From positions 62,001 through 126,000 of the forward strand of contig JAPSGI010000001.1 of NCBI GenBank assembly GCA_031177685.1: DNA of 64,000 nucleotides. The letters are read 5' to 3'. The stretch is from Solirubrobacteraceae bacterium (lineage in GTDB: Bacteria > Actinomycetota > Thermoleophilia > Solirubrobacterales > Solirubrobacteraceae). A program made the position numbers and the translations under genes. The stretch's first letter is position 1; every line of letters begins with the position of its first letter. Below the pieces are notes generated by a model. The model was given only the letters and a program-made list of their open reading frames with translations, had not been told where the DNA came from and made no database searches. This document shows, one piece after another, positions 26,623-42,328 of the stretch.

Positions 26623-26668
26623 ATGGGCGCGGCTGGGTTCGAACCAGCGACCTCTCGCGTGTGAAGCG
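26623..26668. repeat. Left attachment site (46-base copy of tRNA-Val 3' half)
   Basis: Identical to 38600-38645. It carries the anticodon-loop-to-3'-end part of tRNA-Val (CAC), including the T-loop GGTTCGAAC in reverse orientation, but the 5' half of a tRNA is absent. Bases outside the 46 differ at both ends, so the edges are sharp. Confidence 0.9.
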
Positions 26669-27296
26669 CGAGGACGACGCGGCAAGATCTGGGCCAATCT
26701 GGCTCTACGACGAGGGTTGGGTCGCCGTGGGCAGTTCGGTCGCCGGGACGGGATGCCGGTGGACCCGGGTGGATCCGCTCCGATCCGGGCAATCGTTGCC
26801 CACGAGCTTGCGGTCATCCATCCCGACGTGGAGTTCCGATCGCTGATCGCCGACACGGAGCGCCGTACGATAGGGACACGAGGCGCGCGTGAGTCGCGGG
26901 AGCTGATAGTCGAGCTGATTTGACTCTACCTACCGCAAGGAGTGTCGCCGTCGGCTGTCGCGATCGCTGGCCGCCGGCTAAGGGTTCCCTCCGCACCAGT
27001 TGCGAAGGTTCTGCGCCGTGCCGACGCGCCAAGACAGCCTCGATGCGCTCACGGACTACGAGATCCGCATCCGAGCGGCCATCGACCGCGACGAGCATCA
27101 CGATCAGCGTCGAGCGATCCTCCAAGAGGCGGCCTCCCACCTACGCCCGTCTCCTCAATCGCCGATGCTTCTATCAAGGTCTTCCGCGCCGTCTCGTTGG
27201 CGGACGGACCTGCCCGGGGATCCCACAACGCGTGCCCCGAAAGCTCGCCGGAGTTCCGCCCCGCACGGGCGCGTAGCCCCGACCTAGGACCGGGGC
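26669..27296. other. Stretch with only weak coding candidates
   Basis: Two plus-strand frames are possible. One is 26753-26923 (ATG, 56 aa, with a helical part IRAIVAHELAVIHPDVEFRS). The other is 27018-27287 (GTG, 89 aa), whose first 40 residues look like a helical protein (LTDYEIRIRAAIDRDEHHDQ) but whose tail is Ser/Pro/Arg-rich and unconvincing. A longer minus-strand frame 26814-27140 has no recognisable features. I treat the stretch as uncertain. Confidence 0.35.
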
Positions 27297-27674
27297 CTAT
27301 GTGGGGAACGGGGTTTCAGGAGGCGACTGGAGGTCGCTTACGCGCTGGACCGGGCTGCCTGTAGCGTCGAACGTGAGGTCGAATACATCCTCCGTGACGT
27401 TCTCAGCGGACAGCTCCGTGTCGGTTTCGTCAATCGGGTTCTTATAGGTCACGTTGAACCTGACTCGAGCGGCGACCTTGCCGTCGTGGCGCTTGACCTT
27501 CTCGACCTTGGTCGGCTCAGCTGCGACCGCCTGCTGCTGGCCCCCTACGTCAAATACGTCCCCGATCAGATCGATGAACTCTTGCGGGTGCTGATCGCGC
27601 CAGTCTTCGATCGCCTGGAGAATCTCGTCCTCGCCCAGCACGGCGAGGAGCCCAGGGTCCGCATCATCAGCCAT
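27297..27674 (-). CDS. Acidic hypothetical protein (element cargo)
   Basis: A 125-residue soluble protein with an acidic helical N-terminus (LGEDEILQAIEDWRDQHPQE) and a beta-rich C-terminal half (AARVRFNVTYKNPIDETDTE). There is no signal peptide. No family is recognised. It lies at the left end of the element, on the same strand as the two lipoprotein genes but separated from them. Confidence 0.6.
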   Translation of the reverse strand: MADDADPGLLAVLGEDEILQAIEDWRDQHPQEFIDLIGDVFDVGGQQQAVAAEPTKVEKVKRHDGKVAARVRFNVTYKNPIDETDTELSAENVTEDVFDLTFDATGSPVQRVSDLQSPPETPFPT

Positions 27675-27747
27675 GGATGAAGGATACGCACCGCCCGCCT
27701 CCGGGGCGGGCGGTCATCGTCAGGGCCGGTACGCCGGACGAACGGAA

Positions 27748-28092
27748 CTACCGCGACTCCATGATGCAACTCCTGCCGTCGCGGTCACACGTAACGTCGG
27801 TCACCGTCTCGAGCGCGCCCGGGGGACTGACGAAGCTCGACAGGCACTTGTACGCGGTTTCGGATTGCTTGGCGCACGTCGTCCGGGCATCCACGGACGT
27901 ACCCTGCTTCACGGCCTCGCCAAGCGCCCGGTTTTGGACCTCGTCGTTGACCTGGCGCTCGATCGCGGCTGTATCCCGCCGGTCCTGCTCAACCCGGTCG
28001 AGCGGGGTGCTAGCGGGTGGCGACTCAGTGGGTGAGCCGCAGCCGGCAAGGACAACTGCGACCGCCGTGGACCCAAGCCAGCGGGCCATCAT
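27748..28092 (-). CDS. Putative lipoprotein with paired Cys
   Basis: A 114-residue protein. The N-terminal signal ends with the lipobox VLAGC (Cys18), followed by a Ser/Pro linker. The mature part has a helical segment and four further Cys residues (TTCAKQ, YKCLSS, VTCDRD and SCIMESR). Its start overlaps the stop of the upstream lipoprotein gene by four bases. The pair is probably exported and membrane-attached. Function unknown. Confidence 0.65.
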   Translation of the reverse strand: MMARWLGSTAVAVVLAGCGSPTESPPASTPLDRVEQDRRDTAAIERQVNDEVQNRALGEAVKQGTSVDARTTCAKQSETAYKCLSSFVSPPGALETVTDVTCDRDGRSCIMESR

Positions 28093-28526
28093 GACCCTTC
28101 GGCGACAGCGACTACCCTCCGGAACTTGGCTCGCTCGGTCGCGGTTAGACGACGCGGCTCGCCGTAGCGGTAGACACGCGCACCGATCTGCCTGACCACG
28201 CCGCGGCCCGGAAACTCGTCGGTGTAGACCTTTCGGATGCGTCCGTAGTCTGAGCGGGCGTCGTCGGCGCTTCGGTATCCGACGATGCTGACGCCGTCCA
28301 CCGTGAGGGCCTTGACCGCGGTGCCGCTAACTGCGTCGTCCTCGGGTGTGTAGCCGGCGTCTTCGAGGCGGTGGCGTACTTCGGCGAGCGACGCTTCGCG
28401 CTGACCCGGATGCGTGATCGTCGGCGTAGCGGTCGGCCCGGTCGTCGGACTAGCGGTTTCGTCAGCGGAGCCGCCGCAGCCCCCCACAGTAGCGGCGATG
28501 AGAACGGCAAAGATCCTCGCGCGCAA
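28089..28526 (-). CDS. Putative lipoprotein
   Basis: A 145-residue protein with a signal ending in TVGGC (Cys17), a Thr/Pro-rich spacer and a soluble domain (ASLAEVRHRLEDAGYTPEDD, then VDGVSIVGYRSADDARSDYG). The domain resembles small periplasmic alpha/beta proteins, but no family is recognised. It overlaps the following lipoprotein gene by four bases, forming a two-gene unit. Confidence 0.65.
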   Translation of the reverse strand: MRARIFAVLIAATVGGCGGSADETASPTTGPTATPTITHPGQREASLAEVRHRLEDAGYTPEDDAVSGTAVKALTVDGVSIVGYRSADDARSDYGRIRKVYTDEFPGRGVVRQIGARVYRYGEPRRLTATERAKFRRVVAVAEGS

Positions 28527-28648
28527 CCTCTACTCCTTCCTGGACCTGTTCGCGGCATCACGCACAACCAGAGCGTCGACTTTCGGCCCGGCGAGCTTAC
28601 CGGGTTGGTTCTGGTCACGTTGGCTTTGTGCGCTGACCATGCCCGGTC

Positions 28649-28882
28649 GTGGCCACGCCTCTCGAGACGCTCGGCGGAACCGTTCGGGTTATGCGACTTG
28701 CTAAATCCTGGACCCAGGAGGATCTGGCCGACCGGAGCGGTCTCGCGGTCGTTCAGATCAGCAGGATTGAGCGAGGTGTGCGGGAGATTCGCCTGACCAC
28801 GCTCCTTAGGCTGCTTGCGGCGCTCGATACAACGCCGAATGAACTCCTGACCGGACTCTACGAGAAGCCGTCTACTCCGTAG
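28649..28882 (+). CDS. XRE-family helix-turn-helix regulator
   Basis: A 77-residue protein starting with GTG 28649. Nearly the whole length is one HTH_3 domain: VRVMRLAKSWTQEDLADRSG, AVVQISRIERG and LTTLLRLLAALDTTPNELL. Such short Cro/CI-like proteins control genes on mobile elements. It is divergent from the lipoprotein pair and upstream of the AlbA_2 gene; its target is unknown. Confidence 0.85.
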   Translation: MATPLETLGGTVRVMRLAKSWTQEDLADRSGLAVVQISRIERGVREIRLTTLLRLLAALDTTPNELLTGLYEKPSTP

Positions 28883-29058
28883 TGGACGCCTCGTCCCGCT
28901 CGGCAGAGGCCGGCGCGAGGTCGTCAACGGCTTGGCGGCTCGAATAGGGTTTCCCGCGTTCCGGGCGGCCGGGGAGAGGCCCCCGTCACGGGGACGCCAG
29001 TGAGTAGCGGCTCAGATCGCGCTCAAGGGCAGGCTCGGCGCGGTCTACCATCGAGCGG

Positions 29059-30243
29059 GTGGACCCCAAGAGCATTCACCTGCTCTCCCTCGGCGATCTG
29101 ACCGCGGAAGACCTACAAGGGCTGATCGACCACGGCGAGGACGGGAACGTCGAACGGAAGCGCCAGCTCCCCGAGCCCCCCGCGTTCGGAGCCGCCGTCA
29201 ACTCGTTCGCTAACACGGTTGGCGGCTGGGTGCTACTTGGTGTCGATGACGACCGAAGCATCCACGGCTTCGAGAAGCCGGCCAATCTTGACCTACAGTC
29301 CCACCTAGCCGCCCGACTGCGAAACGAGGCCGATCCGCTGCCGCCGTTCGTCGCCGACATGCGGCCGGTGGGCGATAAGCAGATTTGCGCGGTCCGCGTG
29401 TTCCCCTCGACTAGCCTGCCGCACATCGTCCGCGGCACTGGCGCGGTTTACGTGCGAACCTCGAAGGGCAAGGAGCCGATCGATGATCAGCGCGTCTTGA
29501 TCGAGCTGGCCCGGCGGGGGGAGCGCGCCGAGCAGGAAGCACGCGCCCGGCTGACGGACCTCTCGGTCATCTACTCGGCTCTCGTTCCGCCGGATGCCCC
29601 ACAGGGTCAGATCGCCCGATCGGGTGACCCCAACAATACGAAGGTCATCGTCCGGGCCGCCCCCGTCTTGGTCACGCCTCAGTTCGCTGACTGGCCGATC
29701 TCCGAGCGCGGTGCGAACTGGTGCTTTCGTGCAGTCACCAGCATTCCGCTGCCCGGGGACCCCACGGCCAACGCGTACGTCGACGCGCACGGTCGTGGGG
29801 CCGTGGCCCGGACGTTCACGGAAGCGGCGCTCCCTTCTCGTGGGACCTTTGGCGGGACCGTCGCGGCTGACTCGGCAGGGCTGATCGGCGCCTACCTCAG
29901 TCGGCCCAAGCGCGGCGCCGAGCACCTCCCCGTTTTGCGCCGCGAGCTGATCCGGCCGCTCATTGACCTTGTCGCTGACGGGCTCGCCCAAGCCGAGGCA
30001 TACGGGCGCGCCGTGATGGACATGTGGCTCTGCCTGCCCGGTGATGTGGCCGTCAATGAAGCGCAGCGTCACCAGCCCGGACCGAACCCCGACGCGACCC
30101 GGGAGGTAGAGATCCACGCCAGCGGCGAGGTGACCATTCCCTCCTCTGAGGAGGAGACCGCGGCGCTCGGTCGCCAGTGGGAGCGGGAGCTGGCGCGCAA
30201 CTTCGGCATCCACGCGTGGGAGGGCGCGGCCAGCGCCGACTGA
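29059..30243 (+). CDS. AlbA_2 (Schlafen-like) domain protein
   Basis: A 394-residue protein with GTG start. Residues about 15-150 form the AlbA_2 domain: DGNVERKRQLP, AAVNSFANTVGGWVLLGVDD and SIHGFEK, then YVRTSKGKEPI. The Glu-x-Lys and FANTxGG motifs are characteristic of this putative nucleic-acid-binding or nuclease-like domain. The C-terminal 240 residues are not recognised. AlbA_2 proteins occur in defence islands and as regulators. It is the first gene of the plus-strand cargo cluster. Confidence 0.8.
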   Translation: MDPKSIHLLSLGDLTAEDLQGLIDHGEDGNVERKRQLPEPPAFGAAVNSFANTVGGWVLLGVDDDRSIHGFEKPANLDLQSHLAARLRNEADPLPPFVADMRPVGDKQICAVRVFPSTSLPHIVRGTGAVYVRTSKGKEPIDDQRVLIELARRGERAEQEARARLTDLSVIYSALVPPDAPQGQIARSGDPNNTKVIVRAAPVLVTPQFADWPISERGANWCFRAVTSIPLPGDPTANAYVDAHGRGAVARTFTEAALPSRGTFGGTVAADSAGLIGAYLSRPKRGAEHLPVLRRELIRPLIDLVADGLAQAEAYGRAVMDMWLCLPGDVAVNEAQRHQPGPNPDATREVEIHASGEVTIPSSEEETAALGRQWERELARNFGIHAWEGAASAD

Positions 30244-30259
30244 CCTAGAATCGCTGGAC

Positions 30260-30478
30260 ATGCCGACCAGAATCGTGCTGCTTGTCGCCTCAGGCTCCGG
30301 CGGACCCCGCGAGATCTACGTCACCGAGGACCCAGCGGACGTCGCCGGTGTGCTCAACAAGGTGGGAATCGCCGAGCTGACCGCCGAAGGTAGCGGCAAC
30401 AAGGTCTATGTCAGCGCCGGTGCGGTCGCCTTCCTGACCGAGGGGACTCAGCCCAGCGGCCGTGCGAGCTTCACTTAG
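30260..30478 (+). CDS. Small hypothetical protein following the AlbA_2 gene
   Basis: A 72-residue protein beginning RIVLLVASGSGGPREIYVTE, probably a small beta-rich fold. It starts 16 bases after the AlbA_2 stop, so it is likely co-transcribed with it. No family is recognised. Confidence 0.6.
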   Translation: MPTRIVLLVASGSGGPREIYVTEDPADVAGVLNKVGIAELTAEGSGNKVYVSAGAVAFLTEGTQPSGRASFT

Positions 30479-30676
30479 GTGGAAGCTCATCCGGTTCCCG
30501 ATCGGGATCCCTCGCGAGAGGGTTAACGCGGACATTGCCCGGACGCGCTGGCGGCGCCTCGCCACTAGATCCGGCCGCCGAGTGCGAAAAACCCGCCGTC
30601 GCCTGGAATAGCCCGAAGGACAGGGAGCCGCTCCGCAGTGGTCGCGCAGTGCGCCCCACGACACAGTGCTTGGGAG

Positions 30677-31315
30677 TTAGTCGCCGGAAGCCCGACCAAG
30701 GGCACTAGGGAGCAGCGACCGCGCCTTGACATGCGGGTACTGGCCGTTCCTGACCTCCAAACGGGTTTCGTCGCGGTGATGCCCGGCCGCATCCGAGAAC
30801 GCGATCGTCACCGCGAAGTCTTCGAGAACCGCTGCGATCGCTTCCGCGGCGCGTGCGCCCTCGTCGCCATCCTCGACCATGAAACCCACTCGCGTGAGCT
30901 CGCCAGGCGGTAGGACCAGCGTCTCCGCGCTTGCCTCCACGACGTCGCCCCCGACCTCAAACTCAACGGACTCGATCAGCGCCGCGCCGTTGCCGACATT
31001 GCGGATCGGCACGGATGCACCGAACGCGGGTCGGTCGCTCCTGGGGGTCGAGTAGGTACCCAGAGAGACATCGGCAGGATCGCGGCCTGACGCCTCCGCC
31101 CTCTCGCGGTACAGGCCCTTCGGGACATTGGCGATGAAAGGTCTCGTCTGTGCTTCGAGTGCGTCCTGCGCGGCGCGGGTTTGCGCTCGCAGGTGCCGCA
31201 CCGTCACGAGCGCGGCAATCGCGGCGACGGCGGCCGCGACCGCACTTACGGTCTGGGCCCACTCTGGCGCTGCCAGCGCTTGCACTTCGTGAAGGAGCTG
31301 ACCCACGCGTTCCAT
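30677..31315 (-). CDS. Membrane-anchored hypothetical protein
   Basis: A 212-residue protein with one N-terminal membrane helix (about residues 20-42, VSAVAAAVAAIAALVTV), a short coiled segment and a cytoplasmic or external beta-rich domain (VPIRNVGNGAALIESVEFEV). The pattern of a membrane helix followed by a DUF-like beta domain with RNVGNGPA-type motif is common in phage and island proteins of unknown function. It is a lone gene on the minus strand, between the AlbA_2 and DUF3800 genes. Confidence 0.65.
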   Translation of the reverse strand: MERVGQLLHEVQALAAPEWAQTVSAVAAAVAAIAALVTVRHLRAQTRAAQDALEAQTRPFIANVPKGLYRERAEASGRDPADVSLGTYSTPRSDRPAFGASVPIRNVGNGAALIESVEFEVGGDVVEASAETLVLPPGELTRVGFMVEDGDEGARAAEAIAAVLEDFAVTIAFSDAAGHHRDETRLEVRNGQYPHVKARSLLPSALGRASGD

Positions 31316-31442
31316 CAGGTTCGTGCTGTCAATTTGCGCAACGACTTTGCCTAGTGGCTTGCTTAGGACCCCTCTACGGTGGCCAACCGCGGGCTCTGGT
31401 CTATCAAGGACCAGATCTCGCCGAACCTCGCGAGGGCACTGC

Positions 31443-31502
31443 GGCGCAGTCGTCGTCGGCGGCCCGCCGTGCCAGTCCTATGGTTTCGCGGGATTAGCGG
31501 GG
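31443..31502 (+). pseudogene. Remnant of a cytosine-5 DNA methyltransferase (motif IV)
   Basis: The plus-strand frame here reads GAVVVGGPPCQSYGFAGLAG followed by IRAERSG. This matches the catalytic motif IV (GGPPCQ...G) of C5-cytosine methyltransferases, with the nucleophile Cys. Motifs I and VI-X are absent from the surrounding sequence, and the DUF3800 start lies about 60 bases later in the same frame. It looks like a decayed or recombined restriction-modification fragment. Confidence 0.5.
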
Positions 31503-31565
31503 ATTCGGGCAGAAAGGAGCGGTTTGTGCTCTCCCGTCGCCGTCGCCAGTTCTACGGTGCACGGC

Positions 31566-32348
31566 ATGGCCGAGCGCCGCTGCTTCAACGCCTACATCGA
31601 CGAGTCCGGGGACGAGGGCTTCACCCGGATTGGCTGGCGCGCACGCGGCGTCCAAGAGGCGTCGTCGGAGTGGCTGCTGCTCGGCGCCGTGTTGGTATTC
31701 GAGGAGCAGGACGCCGAGCGCACCCGCGCCGTTGACCGGCTGCGCGAGGTCGTTGGTCGCACGCAGAGCAGGAAGCCGCTCCACTGGCGAGATCTGCGAA
31801 ACGACCACGGCAAGAAGCGCCGGGCGATGGACCTGCTTGCCGGCGAGCCGCTCGTCTTCTCCGCGGTCGCCATGTCCAAGCGTCACATCCAGGGCTACGG
31901 GGGTACTGCGCTGGAGCGACGCAAGGGCTACCTCTACAACTGGGCCGCGCGGCTGCTGATCGAACGTTTGAGCTGGTTCGCCGACAAGTCGGGCCGGCAG
32001 CTGAACCTGCTGTTCGAGAACCGCGCCAGCACGCGCTACGGCGACCTCAACCACTATGTGCGCACGATCCAGACCGACCCCGAGTGCTCGATCGCGAAGG
32101 ACTCGATTGCCTCCGCCCAGCCGGTGGAGGCATCACGGAAGGGCGTCCAAATCGCTGACTACTTTGTCAGCGCGGCTGCCGAGGCGCTGGAGCCCGACCT
32201 CGACGGCTACCTAGAGGAGGATTACCTCCTGCGGCTGGGCAAGCGGCTCTACCGACCGACCGGCACCGACGTCCTGAAGTACGGCTTCAAGGTGTTCCCC
32301 GACGAGGCCGCAGACCTGGACCGGTACCCGTGGATGGCCTCGCTCTGA
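31566..32348 (+). CDS. DUF3800 protein (RNase H-like fold)
   Basis: A 260-residue protein from ATG 31566. It begins CFNAYIDESGDEGF, the conserved acidic start of DUF3800, and has KGVQIADYFVSAAAEAL near the C-terminal end, where family members carry an acidic cluster. DUF3800 proteins are thought to adopt an RNase H-like fold; most are uncharacterised and many sit in phage or defence contexts. The reading frame continues upstream through the methyltransferase remnant, so the exact start is inferred from the domain. Confidence 0.8.
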   Translation: MAERRCFNAYIDESGDEGFTRIGWRARGVQEASSEWLLLGAVLVFEEQDAERTRAVDRLREVVGRTQSRKPLHWRDLRNDHGKKRRAMDLLAGEPLVFSAVAMSKRHIQGYGGTALERRKGYLYNWAARLLIERLSWFADKSGRQLNLLFENRASTRYGDLNHYVRTIQTDPECSIAKDSIASAQPVEASRKGVQIADYFVSAAAEALEPDLDGYLEEDYLLRLGKRLYRPTGTDVLKYGFKVFPDEAADLDRYPWMASL

Positions 32349-32402
32349 GCGGGTAGCTTGGGGCGGGTGGGAATCCGCCGGGGGCCGGGGTACTGTCCGC
32401 AT

Positions 32403-32500
32403 AGCAGGCAGGTGCGCGCGAGAACACCCGTAGGCCTCGCAACGCGGGGCAGCCCCTGGGAGTCCGGGGGCGGGATCCTACGGCTCGGGGCCTGCCTGCT
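32403..32500 (+). ncRNA. Strongly folded RNA candidate
   Basis: Nested perfect stems are visible. AGCAGGCAGG (32403-32412) pairs with CCTGCCTGCT (32491-32500), CGAG (32419-32422) with CTCG (32484-32487), and CCGTAGG (32428-32434) with CCTACGG (32477-32483). Inside are two hairpins: CCTCGC/GCGGGG (32435-32449) and GCCCC/GGGGC (32452-32471). This gives a three-way junction of about 98 bases followed by a short T-rich run (TTTCGTT). No known RNA family is recognised. It lies between the DUF3800 and ATPase genes. Confidence 0.45.
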
Positions 32501-32640
32501 TTCGTTCTCGTTCGAGCGATGGCCGATCGAGCCTCGTTAGAACGCGGCTGATGCACCGCTGTTTGAAACGGCTGAGGAGGCCCCCGGGGCTCGCTGGCCG
32601 GGCGCCAATCACGACGGCCAGCTCAGGTACGGTCCGGGTA

Positions 32641-34305
32641 ATGCAGCCGATCTCGGACGATCAGGTCGTCAAGCTACTCCCGGTGCTCGCTGAGGCGGCT
32701 CGGGCCGACAAGGGTACGGCCGAGCGCTTCGTGCCCCCGCGCATCGGGATCCTTGAGGAGACGGCTTCTCGAAGGCACCAGTTCGTCTTTGGTCGCCGAG
32801 GCGTCGGAAAGAGCACGCTCCTTCGCAAGATCGAAAGCCAGGCGGCGAGTGAAGGGCATGGTGACGTCATCTTTGTCGACGTTGAGACCCTCCGCGGCCG
32901 CCCCTATCCCGATGTCCTCATCGAGCTGCTCATCGAGCTGCTCGATTCGCTTGAGCGACGGCTCAAGGCGAAGGCGGGTCGAGTTGATCTGAAGCGGTCC
33001 CGGCGACAGACTCGGAAGGCGCTTCGCGACCTCACCAGGACCATGCGGCAGCTCCGCAACGAGCCGCAAGTCGCCCAGCGAGTGATCCGGCAGCTTCAAT
33101 CGACCGGCCGGGGTATCGACCTTGGGGCCGGGATCGAAGGTAGGGTCAAGCGAGTGATCAGCGCGAAGGCGAGGGCTGAGTACAAGAAGCTGCGCTCGCG
33201 CGAGGAAACCAAGGAGGCGCACGTCGAGGAGTCGAAGATGGATGGCCTCCAAGGCGCGGCCGTGCTCATTCGACAGACCCTCGCTAGGGCGCAGGAGCAC
33301 CTCGATGGCGGCGCGACGTTGATCGTTCTCGATGACTTCTACCACGTGCCCTACGACGCCCAGCCCGACGTCCTGGCATACCTACATCAGGTCGTCAAGA
33401 ACTTGGGGATCTACCTGAAGGTGTGCGGGGTCCGTCACCGCATCCAGCCGTTCGTGGAGGCGGATCCGCCTCGCGGCCTCCAACCAGATCAAGATGCGGG
33501 CGAGGTATCGCTGGACATCACGCTTGAGCGCTTCACGACTGCCCAGACATTTCTTGAGCGCGTCCTACAGGGGATCACCGACCCGCTGAAGATCTCGCTC
33601 GATGACTTGATCACCGAGGGGGGCCGCCGACGACTCGTCCTTGGGTCGGGTGGCGTCGCGCGTGACTACCTCAACCTCACCCAGCGCGCGCTGCGCATCG
33701 CGAACGAGCGGGAGGCGAATCCGAGCCGACCGCATAACCGGATTGGCGCGGAGGACGTCAATGAGGCGGCGGCCGCGATGTTCGCTCAAAAGCAAGAGGA
33801 CCTTCGCCGCGACGCGAGTACCGACGCTGACAAGCTGCGCGAGCGGCTTGCCGACCTCGTGAAGTTCAGCCTCGACGTGAACAAGACGAACGTCTTCCTG
33901 GTCGAGGGGCCAAATCTTCAGGAGGAGGAGTGGGGCAAGGAGATTCAGGCGCTCGCAGACCTCCGCCTACTTCATGAGTTCGGGAACCTGTCCGAGAAGA
34001 GAGGGACGCACCGAGGGCGGCGCTTCGTGGGATTCACGCTCGACCTGAGCAACTACACGGGCACGCGATCCGAGCAAATCACTCAAATCGAGTTCTGGAC
34101 CCGGGAGGGCAAGCAGGCGGCCCGGAGGGCAAACCTGATCTACACGCCGGGTGCGTCCGACCGGCCCCCGAAGAAGAAGGCCGAAAAGCCTCAGCCGGAC
34201 GAGGCCCAAGCCGTTCTGGATGTGTCGGAGTGGGAACAGACCGACATCTACAGCGTCCTGGAGGAGGGAAGTCCCGCCGAGAGTCCGGCCGAGGCCGAGT
34301 TGTAG
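32641..34305 (+). CDS. P-loop ATPase with coiled-coil insertion (AAA+/STAND-like)
   Basis: A 554-residue protein from ATG 32641. Walker A is GRRGVGKST (51-59) and Walker B is TLIVLDDFYH (about 226-235). Between them lies a 90-residue Lys/Arg-rich coiled segment (about 105-200). VCGVRHRI follows the Walker B strand as a sensor-like segment. The C-terminal part has GVARDYLNLTQRAL and a possible winged-helix region. The overall pattern is that of ORC/STAND-type ATPases, and many such proteins on islands are defence effectors or regulators. No partner domain is fused to it. The frame is open upstream but that part looks non-coding. Confidence 0.75.
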   Translation: MQPISDDQVVKLLPVLAEAARADKGTAERFVPPRIGILEETASRRHQFVFGRRGVGKSTLLRKIESQAASEGHGDVIFVDVETLRGRPYPDVLIELLIELLDSLERRLKAKAGRVDLKRSRRQTRKALRDLTRTMRQLRNEPQVAQRVIRQLQSTGRGIDLGAGIEGRVKRVISAKARAEYKKLRSREETKEAHVEESKMDGLQGAAVLIRQTLARAQEHLDGGATLIVLDDFYHVPYDAQPDVLAYLHQVVKNLGIYLKVCGVRHRIQPFVEADPPRGLQPDQDAGEVSLDITLERFTTAQTFLERVLQGITDPLKISLDDLITEGGRRRLVLGSGGVARDYLNLTQRALRIANEREANPSRPHNRIGAEDVNEAAAAMFAQKQEDLRRDASTDADKLRERLADLVKFSLDVNKTNVFLVEGPNLQEEEWGKEIQALADLRLLHEFGNLSEKRGTHRGRRFVGFTLDLSNYTGTRSEQITQIEFWTREGKQAARRANLIYTPGASDRPPKKKAEKPQPDEAQAVLDVSEWEQTDIYSVLEEGSPAESPAEAEL

Positions 34306-34380
34306 TCCGGATCGCGGCGGTCCGCGCCGAGCCAAACTCCGTCCGCCTAGCAGCCCACGGGCGGTACATATGTCTGCGTC

Positions 34381-35049
34381 TCAACTGCGTCCGGAAGGGC
34401 CTGGGACTTGGCCACGATTGATACGGCCTGCAAGAGCGCTCCGCCCGCGTTCGAGTTCGGCAGGACCCCAGTAGAGGAACTCCAAGAGTGCCTCGACGAA
34501 TCCTCTGATGAGAGGAACGTCGCCTTCTTCGACTTCGACATCGTCGTCGTGGCCGCCGATGTTGCGGAACTCCCGGACGAGATGTGCTTGATCGGCCAGA
34601 GGCTTTGGGATCGTCGCTCGCCTCTTGCCGGCCAGCTCGTCAAGCCGCGAACCGAGGTCGCCGCTCGATATGCCCTGGTCTGCGCAGACCGCCTCGAGTA
34701 GCCGTCCGGCACGCACCGCGAATGCGTCGGGTGCATGCGCAAGCTCTAGCATCGCGTTGTAGCGCTGTCCTATCCGCGGCGGAAGATCGTCGAGTTCCCG
34801 TAGCGCCGGATAGATCTGGCGGAAATCCATGTAGTCGCTGGGATCTGACCACCCATCGACGTATTGGTAGGTCGCAAGCGTTGGCTGATCGCATTGAGAA
34901 CAGCGCCGGACCTGAAGAATCCGCTGATTCGTGGTTTCCTCGATAGCGCCGCCCCCGTGCGTGATCTCCGTCGGAGCTTCCGACAACACCACGTCCTTCA
35001 CGTAGATCAGAGTCCCATCTCGACCGCAGTGTCCGCAGCGCTGAGCCAT
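34381..35049 (-). CDS. DUF4145 protein with N-terminal zinc finger
   Basis: A 222-residue protein. The N-terminus has four Cys in two CxxC pairs (RCGHCGRD and RCSQCDQ) that would bind zinc. The rest has the DUF4145 helical pattern: LEAVCADQGISSGDLGSRLD and FRNIGGHDDDVEVEEGDV. DUF4145 domains appear in restriction enzymes and phage-resistance proteins, but their role is unknown. The gene is convergent with the ATPase gene, 75 bases apart. Confidence 0.8.
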   Translation of the reverse strand: MAQRCGHCGRDGTLIYVKDVVLSEAPTEITHGGGAIEETTNQRILQVRRCSQCDQPTLATYQYVDGWSDPSDYMDFRQIYPALRELDDLPPRIGQRYNAMLELAHAPDAFAVRAGRLLEAVCADQGISSGDLGSRLDELAGKRRATIPKPLADQAHLVREFRNIGGHDDDVEVEEGDVPLIRGFVEALLEFLYWGPAELERGRSALAGRINRGQVPGPSGRS

Positions 35050-35202
35050 TCGGATTCAGTATGCATAGCTCTGCCGGATAGCGAACGTCTCCCTGGACGC
35101 GGAACAACCAGCACTCTACGTTCGCCCGACTTTCGTAGACAAGTTGGCCCCGGCAGCAGCGCGAACTGCCCCGGGGCCGTGGCACAGGAGGTATTCGCTC
35201 CC

Positions 35203-35496
35203 ATGCACGACCAGCGTAGCTGCGATGTTGCGGCTGACGAGGAGAGGGCCGACCGGGCAGTTCTGGAGCTGTTGCTGGACCCCGATGGGGTCGTGTGGTC
35301 AGACGATGAACTGGCCCGCGAGCTCGGTGATCCGCTCAGTGTGACCGACAGTCTCGCGCGACTCTACGGCGCGGGCCTGATCCATCGGTTGGAGGGCTTT
35401 GCCTTCGCTACTCGGGCCGCGGCGCGCGCCGGACGGCTCGCGCTAGACAGCGTCGCCGACGGGTGCCGACGGGTCAGTCGGATCACCCTCCACTAG
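35203..35496 (+). CDS. Winged-helix DNA-binding protein
   Basis: A 97-residue protein with ATG 35203 preceded by AGGAGGT. The sequence VLELLLDPDGVVWSDDELAR, ELGDPLSVTDSLARLYGAGL and IHRLEGFAF has the layout of a MarR/PadR-like winged helix. Short proteins of this kind are common in Thermoleophilia. The last 54 bases overlap the 3' end of the convergent integrase gene. Its target is unknown; proximity to the integrase would suit a control role. Confidence 0.75.
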   Translation: MHDQRSCDVAADEERADRAVLELLLDPDGVVWSDDELARELGDPLSVTDSLARLYGAGLIHRLEGFAFATRAAARAGRLALDSVADGCRRVSRITLH

Positions 35497-36681
35497 TGCG
35501 CGAAGCCGACCGCGCTCGCAACCGTCACGCGCCATCTCCCGCGCGTACACCCGGAGCGTCAAGCTGGGGTCGGTATGTCCCATCTGGCCCATGACATAAC
35601 GAGGGTCTCGGCCGACCGCGACGAGGAGCGACGCAAAGGTCCGGCGAAGCGAGTGAGGAGTGAGCCGGTCCGGAAGAGCTGGCTGATCCCGCTCTGCGAG
35701 CGCGCGGTTCGCGCGTTCGACGGCCCGGGCAAGGAGTCGCCGCCGGACGTTGCTCGGACTGTCCTTTCCGCCGCGGGCTGTCCCGAAGACTCGCGCTGCC
35801 GGGTCCGGCGCCCGTCGCGCCTTAAGCGCCGCTAGCTCGTCTCGAAGAAGGGGCACGAGGGTCACGGTTCGATTCCCCGCGTCGGTCTTCGAGCCGCGGA
35901 TCCGGAGCGTCCCGGCGGCGAGGCTCACGTCCTCCCACCGGAGGGAGAGCGCCTCATCGATCCGGAGCCCCGCGAGAGTCAGGGTCGCGAGGAGAACGCG
36001 GCCGTGGCCTTCCCGTAGGCGCCGCTCCCGGTCGAGTGTCTGGGCCGCGTCAAGGAGCGCCATGATCTGCTCGGCCGAGTCCAGGTAGGAGCCCTCGAAG
36101 CGCCGCGCCGCGACCCGTACATCCTCCGCCGGGTTCCTCGCGATCCGGCCGTAACGCACGGCGTCACGGAAGATCGAACGGAGCGTGGCGAGCGTCTTGT
36201 TCAGGTACGTCGCTCCGATGCGGTCCTCCCGTCGCTTCGCGGCTGCATAACGCTCGACCTCCTCGACGTCGATCGCGTCAAGCCGAAGCCCAGCGAACCA
36301 GGGGAGGAGGTGCTGATCAAGCTGGTTACGAAGGTCCGCCCGGGCGCTCTCGCTCAGCCCGTTCCCCATCCGGCCTCCGAGATCGCAGCGGCGCGCATAC
36401 CACTCTTCGGCGAAGACCCCGAAGACCGGCGACACGTCGCGGGCAGCCTCTCGCGTTGCACGCTCGCGCTGCCTCTCCGCCTTGGTCTTGTAGATCCCGA
36501 GTCGGACTCGTGCCAGGAGATCTTCCGCCGTCTGCTCGGCGTCTCGCTGAGTCATGCCCTCCCAGGATCGTCCCAGCGTCTCGTAGATCCTCTCCCCACC
36601 CAGCGTCCGGAAGCGCACGCCGTAGGTCACGCCCCGCTTCCCGCGGTTCTTGTAGATCGGGCCTGTCGCGTTCCGCCTCAT
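35443..36681 (-). CDS. int: Tyrosine-type site-specific integrase
   Basis: A 412-residue tyrosine recombinase. An N-terminal arm-binding region and a core-binding domain (about 85-190) precede the catalytic domain with Arg240 (LAGLRIDEAL), Lys265 (GSKTDAG), His343/Arg346 (PHSLRRTFAS), His369 (MGQMGHTDP) and Tyr379 (LRVYAREM). All catalytic residues are present, so it may be functional. It is 1.9 kb from the tRNA-Val end of the element and the most likely enzyme for the 46-base attachment repeats. Its start overlaps the stop of the helix-turn-helix gene (ATGA). Confidence 0.95.
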   Translation of the reverse strand: MRRNATGPIYKNRGKRGVTYGVRFRTLGGERIYETLGRSWEGMTQRDAEQTAEDLLARVRLGIYKTKAERQRERATREAARDVSPVFGVFAEEWYARRCDLGGRMGNGLSESARADLRNQLDQHLLPWFAGLRLDAIDVEEVERYAAAKRREDRIGATYLNKTLATLRSIFRDAVRYGRIARNPAEDVRVAARRFEGSYLDSAEQIMALLDAAQTLDRERRLREGHGRVLLATLTLAGLRIDEALSLRWEDVSLAAGTLRIRGSKTDAGNRTVTLVPLLRDELAALKARRAPDPAARVFGTARGGKDSPSNVRRRLLARAVERANRALAERDQPALPDRLTPHSLRRTFASLLVAVGRDPRYVMGQMGHTDPSLTLRVYAREMARDGCERGRLRALVEGDPTDPSAPVGDAV

Positions 36682-37223
36682 TGCAGCTCCCTCGGAGTCG
36701 GGCGGCGAGGGGAAGGCCGGCCAGCCGCAGCCGACTCCGGTGAGGCGGAGCTACGCTGCGAGCGCGGCGAGGACTTGTCCCTCGTCGCCGGGCCCGGGGC
36801 GTTAGCGCGCCGCCGGGCCGCTTTTGTCGATGACGGGCGTGGTTGTAGCTCGCGAACGGGCAGGGAGTCCAGCCCGTTGCCCGGAATCGACCGGCCCGGC
36901 GACGCGCATTCGCCCGCAGCTACGGGCGTTCCCCCCGCCTCTGACCTCACGCTCTCGGAGCGTCCGGTCAGCGCCGCCAGGCTGGTCGCCGGGTGGAATC
37001 GGAGGCGGGGGCGCGTCCCATCTCCCAGGCGGATCGCGGCCAGACGCTCCGCGTTACTGCGGACCCACTCCGGGGAGACGCCGAGCTGGGCCGCGAGTTC
37101 GTCCGCCGTCACGAGGCCCGCTCCGCGATCGGCGTCCTGGTGCATGGCGGCGAGGACGCGGGCCGCGACCTGCTCGGCGAGGAGCGTGACGTCGTCCGGG
37201 TGGAGTCGCGCAAGGCCGCTCAC
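36678..37223 (-). CDS. Helix-turn-helix protein (excisionase-like) coupled to the integrase
   Basis: A 181-residue protein with GTG 37223, overlapping the preceding gene's stop (GTGA) and the integrase start (ATGA). Residues about 33-75 form a helix-turn-helix (LVTADELAAQLGVSPEWVRS, then RFHPATSLAALTG), similar to excisionases and MerR-like HTH_17 domains. The C-terminal third is Ser/Pro/Arg-rich and probably disordered. A role in excision or control is inferred from the position. Confidence 0.7.
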   Translation of the reverse strand: MSGLARLHPDDVTLLAEQVAARVLAAMHQDADRGAGLVTADELAAQLGVSPEWVRSNAERLAAIRLGDGTRPRLRFHPATSLAALTGRSESVRSEAGGTPVAAGECASPGRSIPGNGLDSLPVRELQPRPSSTKAARRRANAPGPATRDKSSPRSQRSSASPESAAAGRPSPRRPTPRELQ

Positions 37224-37864
37224 GGCTGGTTCCCCGCGTCCTGGTCGCCGATCTTCGCTCCGGGCCCGGGCACGTAGAGGCGCGGGCCTTCGCGGAACCC
37301 GTCCAACGACGGGAGCGAGCCCACGTGGCGGATCGTCCCGGCGCTGGTGAACGATCGAAGTGCCCACGCGACGGGACCTGGCTTGAGACCGAGGCGCTTG
37401 GCGGCCCACCCACCGGCATAGATCGCCGGTCGGGTGTCGCCGACCGCGAGGAGGAGCCCGAAGATCAGCTCGAGATCGTCGGCCACGCGGTGGCTGACGG
37501 CTCGCGCTTGCGCCGGACGGACAAGCTCCACGAGGACCGGCTCCAACTGCCCGTTCGCGTGACGCGTGAGCAGCTCATTGGCGTCCGGGAGATCCGCCTG
37601 AACTTCAGTAACGCCAACGCCAACTCCAACTCCAACTCCAACGCTAGGTCTCGACGAGGAGGACGTAGCCGGGTTAATGAAGTTCAGACCCTCGTCATTC
37701 CGAGAGTTCGGAACGGAGCTACGCACCGGCCGCGGGTCCGCGGTCGGCGGGATTTCGGGAGTGGACGGGATCGCGCGCAGCTCCTCGGCGAACCACAAGT
37801 CCAGGTCCGAGCAGGGCCCCAACTCGCGTTCGAGCTCCCGGCGCAGCTCCTCGCGGGCCGTCAC
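37220..37864 (-). CDS. Hypothetical element protein with Gly-Val repeat
   Basis: A 214-residue protein with GTG 37864, overlapping both neighbours by four bases. The N-terminal 40 residues are helical (REELRRELERELG). The middle has a VGVGVGVGVGV run from a hexanucleotide repeat (37611-37644). The C-terminal half (about 110-200) looks like a helical or winged-helix domain (AVSHRVADDLELIFGLLLAV, then AAKRLGLKPGPVAWALRSF). It may be a replication or DNA-binding accessory, but nothing is established. Confidence 0.6.
   Translation of the reverse strand: MTAREELRRELERELGPCSDLDLWFAEELRAIPSTPEIPPTADPRPVRSSVPNSRNDEGLNFINPATSSSSRPSVGVGVGVGVGVTEVQADLPDANELLTRHANGQLEPVLVELVRPAQARAVSHRVADDLELIFGLLLAVGDTRPAIYAGGWAAKRLGLKPGPVAWALRSFTSAGTIRHVGSLPSLDGFREGPRLYVPGPGAKIGDQDAGNQP
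37611..37644. repeat. Hexanucleotide tandem repeat (ACNCCA)
   Basis: Five and two-thirds units of AC(G/T)CCA lie inside the preceding gene and encode Val-Gly alternation on the minus strand. Loss or gain of a six-base unit would keep the frame, changing only the length of the linker. Confidence 0.8.
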
Positions 37865-38373
37865 GCGAGTACCTCCGGCAGCCGGAGGGGGGCGTCAGCG
37901 CCATCGAGACGGACCGCGAGCGCGGACGCGCGCTGGCGGGCTACATGTGCGGCGTCGAGCCGCTCAGGAGCGCTTAGAGGCCGGGCGCGTCCCGGCTCGG
38001 GTTCTGATCCGCCGTCGTCCGAAGGACCTGCGCGCGTACTCGTCCGGCGCGAGCCGCGTCGCCGAACTGTGCGCCCTCCCCGTGGGGCGCGCCCTCCGCG
38101 GCGGTAGCGACACCCTCGCCGGAGTCCAGGAACAACTGTCCGACGTGACGCGAGGTTGCGCTGAGATATCGCCATCAGATTTCCCCGGGCGACGTCCCCG
38201 CCGGCGATCCGGGAGAACACCTCGTAGGCCTGTTCGACGACTTCGGGATCGACGTCCGGCACATCTAGGAGGGGTCCGAAGACCTGGAGGGCTTCCGCGG
38301 CCTGCCACCCATCGCCGGCCACCGCGAGGCTGATCACCTGTTGAAGATCGCGCTCCACGTCGCGGCACAACAT
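37861..38373 (-). CDS. Hypothetical element protein (frame uncertain in the middle)
   Basis: The frame from ATG 38373 encodes about 170 residues. The N-terminal part is convincingly coding (LCRDVERDLQQVISLAVAGD, VEQAYEVFSRIAGG), as is the end (APERLDAAHVARQRASALAV). The middle, after SQRNLASR, is Arg/Gly-rich, and the neighbouring frame there reads more like protein (FLDSGEGVATAAEGA). That would fit a frameshift or two overlapping genes. The frame extends upstream to a TTG at 38523. The stop overlaps the next gene (GTGA). Confidence 0.45.
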   Translation of the reverse strand: MLCRDVERDLQQVISLAVAGDGWQAAEALQVFGPLLDVPDVDPEVVEQAYEVFSRIAGGDVARGNLMAISQRNLASRRTVVPGLRRGCRYRRGGRAPRGGRTVRRRGSRRTSTRAGPSDDGGSEPEPGRARPLSAPERLDAAHVARQRASALAVRLDGADAPLRLPEVLA

Positions 38374-38423
38374 GCACGACGCGCCGGACAGATTCGACTT
38401 GTCCGACCCATGTGGTAAGCGGC

Positions 38424-38516
38424 TTACCGGGAGGGCGGCTCCTGGGGGATCCCCTGTGACCTTGCGGTCAACGCGATGGCGTAGGCACGGAAGAACGGGC
38501 AATCGTCGCAGGTCAT
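38424..38516 (-). CDS. 30-residue CxxC peptide
   Basis: A short frame with ATG 38516, MTCDDCPFFRAYAIALTARS, which ends at TAA 38424. The two-Cys motif suggests a half zinc site. There is no strong Shine-Dalgarno. It would be the first gene of the overlapping chain that leads to the integrase. Low confidence because of its size. Confidence 0.3.
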   Translation of the reverse strand: MTCDDCPFFRAYAIALTARSQGIPQEPPSR

Positions 38517-38599
38517 TGCCCAATAGGAGGCGCGCCTACGGTCCCTAGTGGTTCTTCCTGAAGCCGTCGAACCCGCTCAGGAGCAGGGAAATACGAAGC

Positions 38600-38645
38600 A
38601 TGGGCGCGGCTGGGTTCGAACCAGCGACCTCTCGCGTGTGAAGCG
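38600..38645. repeat. Right attachment site (46 bases, inside tRNA-Val)
   Basis: Identical to 26623-26668. It spans from the anticodon stem to the 3' end of the intact tRNA-Val gene. Integration here preserves the tRNA, as is usual for tyrosine integrases that target tRNA 3' halves. Confidence 0.9.
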
Positions 38646-38672
38646 AGCGCTCTCCCACTGAGCTACGCGCCC
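38601..38672 (-). tRNA. tRNA-Val(CAC)
   Basis: A 72-base tRNA. The acceptor stem GGGCGCG/CGCGCCC has discriminator A. The anticodon stem CTCGC/GCGAG holds the loop TTCACAC, so the anticodon is CAC (Val, GUG). The T-arm is CTGGTTCGAACCCAG. It is the integration target of the element; its 3' half is duplicated at 26623-26668. Confidence 0.95.
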
Positions 38673-42046: not shown

Positions 42047-42328
42047 CGTGGACCGTGCTAGGCGGGGAGGTAGCGGTGCCCTGCACCCGCAATCCGCTCT
42101 AGCGGGGCTGAATTCCCTCTCGAGGGGCCTCGGCTCTCGGGTCAGCGCGCCGGTGGAGGCGTCGATGGCCGGGTCCCGCGCGATGCAGGCCCGTGAACCA
42201 GGTCAGGTCCGGAAGGAAGCAGCCTTAAGCGGCCCCCTGTAGGCGCAGCGGGAGCACCCGTGCCGGAGCCACCGCCGGCGAGAGCGTCTCGAGAGCCCGT
42301 CTCGACGGAGGGTGCACGGTCCGCTTTT
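42047..42328 (+). ncRNA. ffs: Signal recognition particle RNA (large bacterial type)
   Basis: The closing helix pairs GTGGACCGTGC (42048-42058) with GCACGGTCCGC (42314-42324). The 5' part holds the Alu-domain pattern (GCTAGGCGGGGAGGTAGCGG and TGCCCTGCACCCGCAATCC). The conserved S-domain hairpin GGTCAGGTCCGGAAGGAAGC is at 42201-42220. A run of T's (42325-42328) follows. It guides ribosomes making membrane proteins to the membrane together with Ffh. The roughly 280-base length is that of large SRP RNAs, not of the short 4.5S kind. Confidence 0.9.

What the first reader, a model, noticed from the sequence alone, without database searches (positions are those of the whole stretch)
32403..32500. 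Nested perfect stems form a three-way-junction RNA between the DUF3800 and ATPase genes
Ten, four and seven base perfect stems are nested and enclose two further hairpins, a level of ordered pairing that is much more than expected by chance even at high GC. A short T-rich run follows. There is no open reading frame here worth considering. A guide, regulatory or leader RNA for the ATPase gene (start at 32641) is possible.
Basis: seen in the sequence. Interest (0 to 1): 0.65.

Follow-up and report, generated by a model that had tools for sequence, protein, structure and literature searches.

The report
DUF3800-partner small RNA (known Rfam family)
The folded stretch is a real small RNA of a known family of unknown function (Rfam DUF3800-VII); across bacteria and phages it sits beside the gene for an RNase-H-like protein, and we think the RNA holds that protein in check, as in RNA-based toxin-antitoxin pairs.

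Summary
The fold is real and better than chance: MFE -61.6 kcal/mol, z = -3.6, 0 of 200 shuffles and 0 of 1,372 GC-matched window tiles as stable. It matches Rfam RF02967 (DUF3800-VII, 62.7 bits). I collected 58 homologues; every helix covaries (145 two-sided changes against 47 shuffled; 52 G-U against 5 A-C cells, which fixes the strand).

The partner is the upstream DUF3800 gene, not the ATPase. Of 58 RNAs, 39 have DUF3800 adjacent. Of 18 viral loci found by protein alone, 16 have the RNA and two a weaker one of similar shape. Usually the two genes converge; the window belongs to a supported side branch where they run the same way. In many homologues a promoter sits just upstream of the first paired base, and 15 of 52 end in a T-run, leaving little room for a guide. 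The DUF3800 model matches RNase HII/HIII.

The pair rides on a 12.0-kb tRNA-Val island bounded by perfect 46-bp repeats. Relatives lie in prophages and islands, one RNA per genome. Intact RNAs also occur without DUF3800.

My best guess, untested, is an RNA-restrained nuclease resembling type III toxin-antitoxin or abortive infection. New member of a known, functionally unexplained family.

The parts
32403..32500 (+). DUF3800-VII RNA with its extended outer stem (Rfam match 32407-32501)
   Evidence: RF02967, 62.7 bits, gathering 36.2, E 1.6e-10; own model R1 73.4 bits; fold z -3.59
32403..32412 (+). P1 outer stem, 5' arm (pairs with 32491-32500)
   Evidence: MFE fold; all 7 modelled pairs of P1 show two-sided changes across homologues
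32491..32500 (+). P1 outer stem, 3' arm
32391..32396 (+). possible -10 element TACTGT, 6 nt before the first paired base
   Evidence: read from sequence; position agrees with the -10 peak in homologues; not called by the consensus scan, so weak
31566..32348 (+). DUF3800 protein gene, 260 aa, RNase-H-like fold; all columns invariant in the family alignment are kept
   Evidence: PF12686 E 3e-8; alignment A2; AlphaFold2 pLDDT 84.5; Foldseek best hits RNase HII/HIII
26623..26668 (.). one end of the island: 46-bp perfect copy of part of tRNA-Val
   Evidence: exact direct repeat
38600..38645 (.). other end of the island, within the tRNA-Val gene (38601-38672, -)
   Evidence: exact direct repeat; tRNA
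35443..36681 (-). tyrosine integrase of the island
   Evidence: PF00589 E 1.2e-18
32551..34305 (+). AAA ATPase downstream; not a conserved partner of the RNA
   Evidence: PF13401 E 2.9e-7; neighbours vary between loci

Best explanation
The element is a roughly 90-nt stand-alone small RNA of the Rfam family DUF3800-VII, the RNA half of a two-part RNA-protein module whose other half is the adjacent DUF3800 gene. Shown by computation: the fold, its covariation, the strand, the linkage to DUF3800, promoters placed at the 5' end in relatives, the RNase-H-like model, and carriage on an integrative island. Inferred: the RNA folds into a three-way junction that binds the DUF3800 nuclease in trans and keeps it inactive; if the RNA is lost or out-titrated, for example when a phage shuts down host transcription, the nuclease is released and acts on nucleic acid, harming the infected cell. 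That is the logic of type III toxin-antitoxin and abortive-infection pairs. The confidence given is for the inferred mechanism; the identity as a DUF3800-VII RNA is close to certain.
For: Identity. Covariation: 93.8% of cells paired, 23 of 29 pairs with two-sided changes, 145 two-sided cells against 47 shuffled, slid structures 34-44% paired. RNA strand: 52 G-U against 5 A-C cells. Linkage from both sides: 39 of 58 RNAs have DUF3800 adjacent; 16 of 18 protein-first viral loci have the RNA, and the other two carry a conserved folding block at the same place, scoring 24.6 bits, E 0.012, in the one scanned. Between distant loci, DNA similarity covers RNA plus DUF3800 and mostly stops near their outer ends. 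Own promoter: TATAAT-like in 22 of 52 loci 4-10 nt upstream against 0-2 in control windows, with a -35 peak about 17 nt further up. RNase HII/HIII-like fold. One RNA per genome in 26 of 26 genomes or records. Asymmetry: RNAs without DUF3800 score as well as paired ones (medians 75 and 78 against 74). Precedent: the abiF motif RNA of C. difficile neutralises its toxin by direct binding (PMC12373285).
Against: No toxicity, binding or expression data exist. Type III antitoxins lie upstream of the toxin in one transcript and usually as repeats; here the RNA is single and usually converges on the gene. Two more distant DUF3800 genes (Mycobacterium phage Mask, Streptomyces plasmid) show no clear matching RNA, so not every DUF3800 needs one. 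Defence-type neighbours are present but a minority, with no comparison set. The RNA could equally be an activating cofactor.
Confidence: 0.42

Rival explanations
1. The RNA is a required activating or scaffold cofactor: RNA and DUF3800 form an effector ribonucleoprotein that cuts a nucleic acid, for instance RNA-DNA hybrids of incoming phages or plasmids.
For: Same linkage and conservation data; RNase HII/HIII-like fold; DUF3800 proteins accompany some class 2 CRISPR systems and were proposed to act in interference or crRNA handling (PMC10910872 and PMC12669027).
Against: Intact RNAs persist without DUF3800 in 18 of 19 genomes or records checked, the 19th holding only a fragment; a pure cofactor should decay once its protein is gone.
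Confidence: 0.27
2. It is a guide RNA of a mobile or homing RNA-guided nuclease, like omega RNAs of IscB/TnpB or bridge RNAs of IS110.
For: RNase-H-like protein next to a structured RNA; the module is mobile through islands and prophages.
Against: Promoters abut the 5' paired base in many loci and in 15 of 52 a T-run abuts the 3' one; no long variable segment in the RNA; one copy per genome in 26 of 26; mobility here is explained by an integrase and tRNA repeats.
Confidence: 0.08
3. It is a 5' leader or attenuator of the downstream ATPase gene.
For: In the window it lies upstream of and in line with the ATPase.
Against: The downstream gene is not conserved; 36 of 39 RNA-first relatives with DUF3800 point the RNA at the end of DUF3800 instead.
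Confidence: 0.03
4. The RNA regulates DUF3800 expression as an antisense or 3'-end stabilising RNA rather than acting on the protein.
For: In most loci the RNA ends within 15 nt of, or overlaps, the DUF3800 stop on the opposite strand.
Against: The co-directional branch (window, Paenibacillus, two viral records) has no antisense overlap yet keeps the fold; an antisense role needs no conserved three-way junction.
Confidence: 0.12

Closest known systems
Rfam RF02967 DUF3800-VII RNA
   Same: Sequence, three-way fold, beside DUF3800; scores well above the gathering threshold
   Different: Runs in the same direction as DUF3800, whereas most relatives converge; extended 10-bp outer stem; GCGGGATCC in place of the common GTGGGATCC core
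AbiF / abiF motif RNA (RF03085), RCd22 of C. difficile
   Same: Phage-borne protein paired with a small structured RNA first seen as a comparative-genomics motif; shown there to be a neutralising RNA (PMC12373285)
   Different: Different protein family (Abi_2, related to Cas13 ancestors); RNA upstream of the gene with two motif copies, not single and convergent
ToxIN / type III toxin-antitoxin
   Same: Proposed logic: nuclease held by a structured RNA
   Different: ToxI is a tandem-repeat pseudoknot upstream of the gene (PMC5086642); here a single three-way junction, RNase-H-like protein, separate promoter in many relatives
DUF3800 proteins of type V-A2 and VI-F CRISPR loci
   Same: Same protein family, RNase H fold (PMC10910872, PMC12669027)
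   Different: Those act beside CRISPR effectors; none is adjacent here

Membership tests
Rfam DUF3800-VII (RF02967) | Covariance-model score above the curated gathering score | tested here: met
   62.7 bits against 36.2
Rfam DUF3800-VII (RF02967) | Consensus helices supported by covariation with homologues | tested here: met
   all five helices have pairs with two-sided changes
Rfam DUF3800-VII (RF02967) | Adjacent DUF3800 gene | tested here: met
   59-nt gap, PF12686
Type III toxin-antitoxin | Antitoxin RNA upstream of the toxin in the same transcript | tested here: not met
   RNA is 3' of DUF3800; usually convergent
Type III toxin-antitoxin | Tandem RNA repeats | tested here: not met
   one copy in the window and one per genome
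Type III toxin-antitoxin | ToxN/AbiQ-type toxin | tested here: not met
   DUF3800 Pfam and RNase HII/HIII-like fold
Type III toxin-antitoxin | RNA neutralises the protein | not testable with these tools
   needs a toxicity or binding assay
RNA-guided mobile element (omega RNA, bridge RNA) | Guide segment outside or inside the scaffold | tested here: not met
   promoters abut the 5' end in many relatives and T-runs the 3' end in 15 of 52; loops short; a short 3' extension in the other loci is not fully excluded
RNA-guided mobile element (omega RNA, bridge RNA) | Multi-copy transposition | tested here: not met
   single copy in 26 of 26

The most novel reading that the evidence does not exclude
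DUF3800-VII pairs are an undescribed class of RNA-restrained RNase-H-fold toxin, and the intact stand-alone RNAs found in phages without DUF3800 are decoy antitoxins that phages use against it, as shown for the pseudo-ToxI of phage TE.
Probability: 0.2. Interest if true: 0.75.

Novelty: new member of a known kind. Interest (0 to 1): 0.42.

Why it matters
The RNA family is in Rfam, and I found no function for it in the open-access papers searched. The anatomy gathered here (own promoter, DUF3800 as the constant neighbour, RNase HII/HIII-like fold, single copy, island cargo, intact orphan RNAs) turns it into a specific, cheaply testable hypothesis: co-express the 260-aa protein with and without the 98-nt RNA. 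If the antitoxin reading holds, it would add an RNase-H-fold protein to RNA-controlled toxins and explain why phages carry the RNA alone.

Tried and rejected
Leader for the ATPase: no conserved downstream gene. Guide RNA: little room for a guide, single copy. Transposable unit: the RNA+DUF3800 block has the same content everywhere but is carried by islands and prophages with their own integrase and repeats. Empty-site comparison in close relatives of the window failed because the island is not shared. Sequence search of solved structures gave only spurious protein-A matches. The founding paper on DUF3800 RNAs (10.1093/nar/gkx699, named from memory) is not in the library. PADLOC found no named defence system for DUF3800. 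A C5-methyltransferase-like motif upstream of DUF3800 (PPCQ, 31440-31500) has only weak support (E 0.02 or worse) and was not pursued. An E. coli genome search with a Cupriavidus homologue of the RNA found nothing.

Full report
Observation. Stability exceeds chance by two controls: dinucleotide shuffles (z = -3.59, 0 of 200) and tiles of the same window with matched GC (0 of 1,372). Unmatched, 62 of 5,114 tiles are as stable; the best 15 have 84-90% GC, so the GC-matched control is the relevant one.

Identity. Rfam assigns the segment to RF02967, DUF3800-VII RNA (62.7 bits, gathering 36.2). It is the only match of this family in the genome and none of 398 other genomes of its class matched; with my own model it was alone among 297 genomes of its phylum, and 2 of 250 genomes of the family of the Paenibacillus relative matched. 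The family is rare and patchy.

Homologues. A degenerate pattern built on the core (GCGC...GGCAGC...GYGGGATCC) scanned over genome and viral contigs returned at least 118 and 50 stretches (a first viral scan). A covariance model built from 24 of them (R1) separated 58 RNAs scoring 42 bits or more from noise at 20 or less; the window scores 73.4. Hosts include Pseudomonadota, Bacillota, Chloroflexota, Planctomycetota, Nitrospirota, Verrucomicrobiota, Armatimonadota, Calditrichota and phages.

Structure evidence. On the 24-sequence alignment 93.8% of cells pair, 23 of 29 pairs show two-sided changes, two-sided cells number 145 against a shuffled mean of 46.9, and sliding the partner by one to three columns drops pairing to 34-44%. 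The structure was set from the Rfam consensus and these sequences, so cell-pairing alone is biased; the two-sided counts carry the weight. G-U cells outnumber A-C cells 52 to 5, which fixes the RNA strand and argues against a DNA hairpin.

Transcription. In 22 of 52 non-redundant loci a hexamer with at least 5 of 6 matches to TATAAT ends 4-10 nt before the first paired base, against 0 to 2 in three control windows, and a -35 peak lies about 17 nt further up; 15 of 52 have four or more T within 9 nt of the last pair. In the window itself neither promoter nor terminator meets the consensus scan; TACTGT at 32391-32396 is a plausible actinobacterial -10 by position only.

Partner gene. Of 58 RNAs, 39 have an adjacent DUF3800 gene: 36 convergent, in most with the RNA within 15 nt of the DUF3800 stop or overlapping the gene, and 3 co-directional. 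Approached from the protein, 18 viral DUF3800 loci were fetched without reference to the RNA; 16 have it (14 convergent, 2 co-directional). The other two share a conserved folding block in the same place that scores below the gathering threshold in the one scanned (L218, 24.6 bits, E 0.012). Two relatives from the window's class (L012, L013) also have a block after DUF3800 that folds into a closing helix with two hairpins; by eye it shows a few compensatory changes between the two, with no Rfam match. Two more distant DUF3800 genes (L008, L235) showed no clear equivalent.

The window's branch. In trees of 26 and 38 DUF3800 proteins the co-directional members group together: window with Paenibacillus at 96/89, then with two viral records (L216, L219) at 95/96. 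The window row is long-branched, so its exact place is unsure.

Protein. The window protein keeps every invariant residue of the family alignment (D12, E13, S14, E17, H73, K105, E133, R153, D198 among others). AlphaFold2 gave pLDDT 84.5, pTM 0.87; Foldseek best hits in the PDB are RNase HII and HIII (E 2e-4 to 8e-4, probability 0.99-1.0, TM about 0.4). TM is modest, so this supports a shared fold class, not the same substrate. A published analysis reports an RNase H fold with catalytic rearrangement for DUF3800 (PMC10910872).

Setting. The module lies on a 12,023-bp island between perfect 46-bp copies of part of tRNA-Val (26623-26668 and 38600-38645), with a tyrosine integrase at 35443-36681 and lower GC than the flanks (0.668 against 0.733 and 0.722). 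In Stenotrophomonas the flank similarity to relatives stops at a 41-bp sequence that recurs about 12 kb away in the same genome, as expected for another island. Neighbours have no constant member; type I restriction, YhcG, RhuM and S24 repressor genes recur as a minority, with no comparison set.

Orphans. In 19 genomes or records whose RNA lacks a neighbouring DUF3800, a DUF3800 profile found nothing in 18 and a 22-residue remnant in one. Scores of orphan RNAs equal those of paired ones (Mann-Whitney p = 0.67). Several records are fragments and one RNA lies at a contig end, so some may be incomplete. A group of related phage contigs carries nearly identical RNAs (about 97%) with different flanks on either side.

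Mechanism. Linkage, an own promoter, single copy, short loops and the orphan asymmetry favour an RNA that acts in trans on the protein. Of the two ways it could do so, restraint fits the survival of orphan RNAs better than activation, because an RNA that only activates its neighbour has no use alone, whereas an antitoxin can protect against the toxin of another element; phage TE escapes ToxIN with a pseudo-ToxI RNA (PMC5086642), and abiF motif RNA neutralises AbiF (PMC12373285). I put 0.42 on restraint, 0.27 on activation, and the rest on antisense control, guide RNA, leader and others. No step of the mechanism has been tested.

Noticed in passing
26623-38645: 12.0-kb integrative island in tRNA-Val with perfect 46-bp end repeats, tyrosine integrase, HTH, Schlafen/AlbA_2, AAA ATPase and DUF4145 genes; lower GC than its flanks.
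   Followed up: partly
31440-31500 (+): Short stretch resembling the PPCQ motif of C5 cytosine methyltransferases just upstream of DUF3800; weak matches only, may be chance or a remnant.
   Followed up: no
32641-34302 (+): AAA ATPase with similarity to the mad8 model of PADLOC (E 3.6e-8).
   Followed up: no
L136, L137, L141, L175, L176, L179 (viral contigs): Nearly identical DUF3800-VII RNAs in related phages, without DUF3800, with left and right flanks reshuffled around the RNA.
   Followed up: partly
L219 3995-6364: DUF3800 gene split by a transposase insertion while its RNA and promoter-like sequence stay intact.
   Followed up: no
L012 and L013, 3' of DUF3800; L218 and L226, 3' of DUF3800: Three-way-junction-like RNA blocks after DUF3800 that fall outside or below current Rfam models; candidates for new DUF3800 RNA subfamilies.
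   Followed up: partly
G404 (Stenotrophomonas, locus L039): Module in an apparent island marked by a 41-bp sequence repeated about 12 kb away.
   Followed up: no
42053-42319 (+): Bacterial large SRP RNA (RF01854), outside the finding.
   Followed up: no
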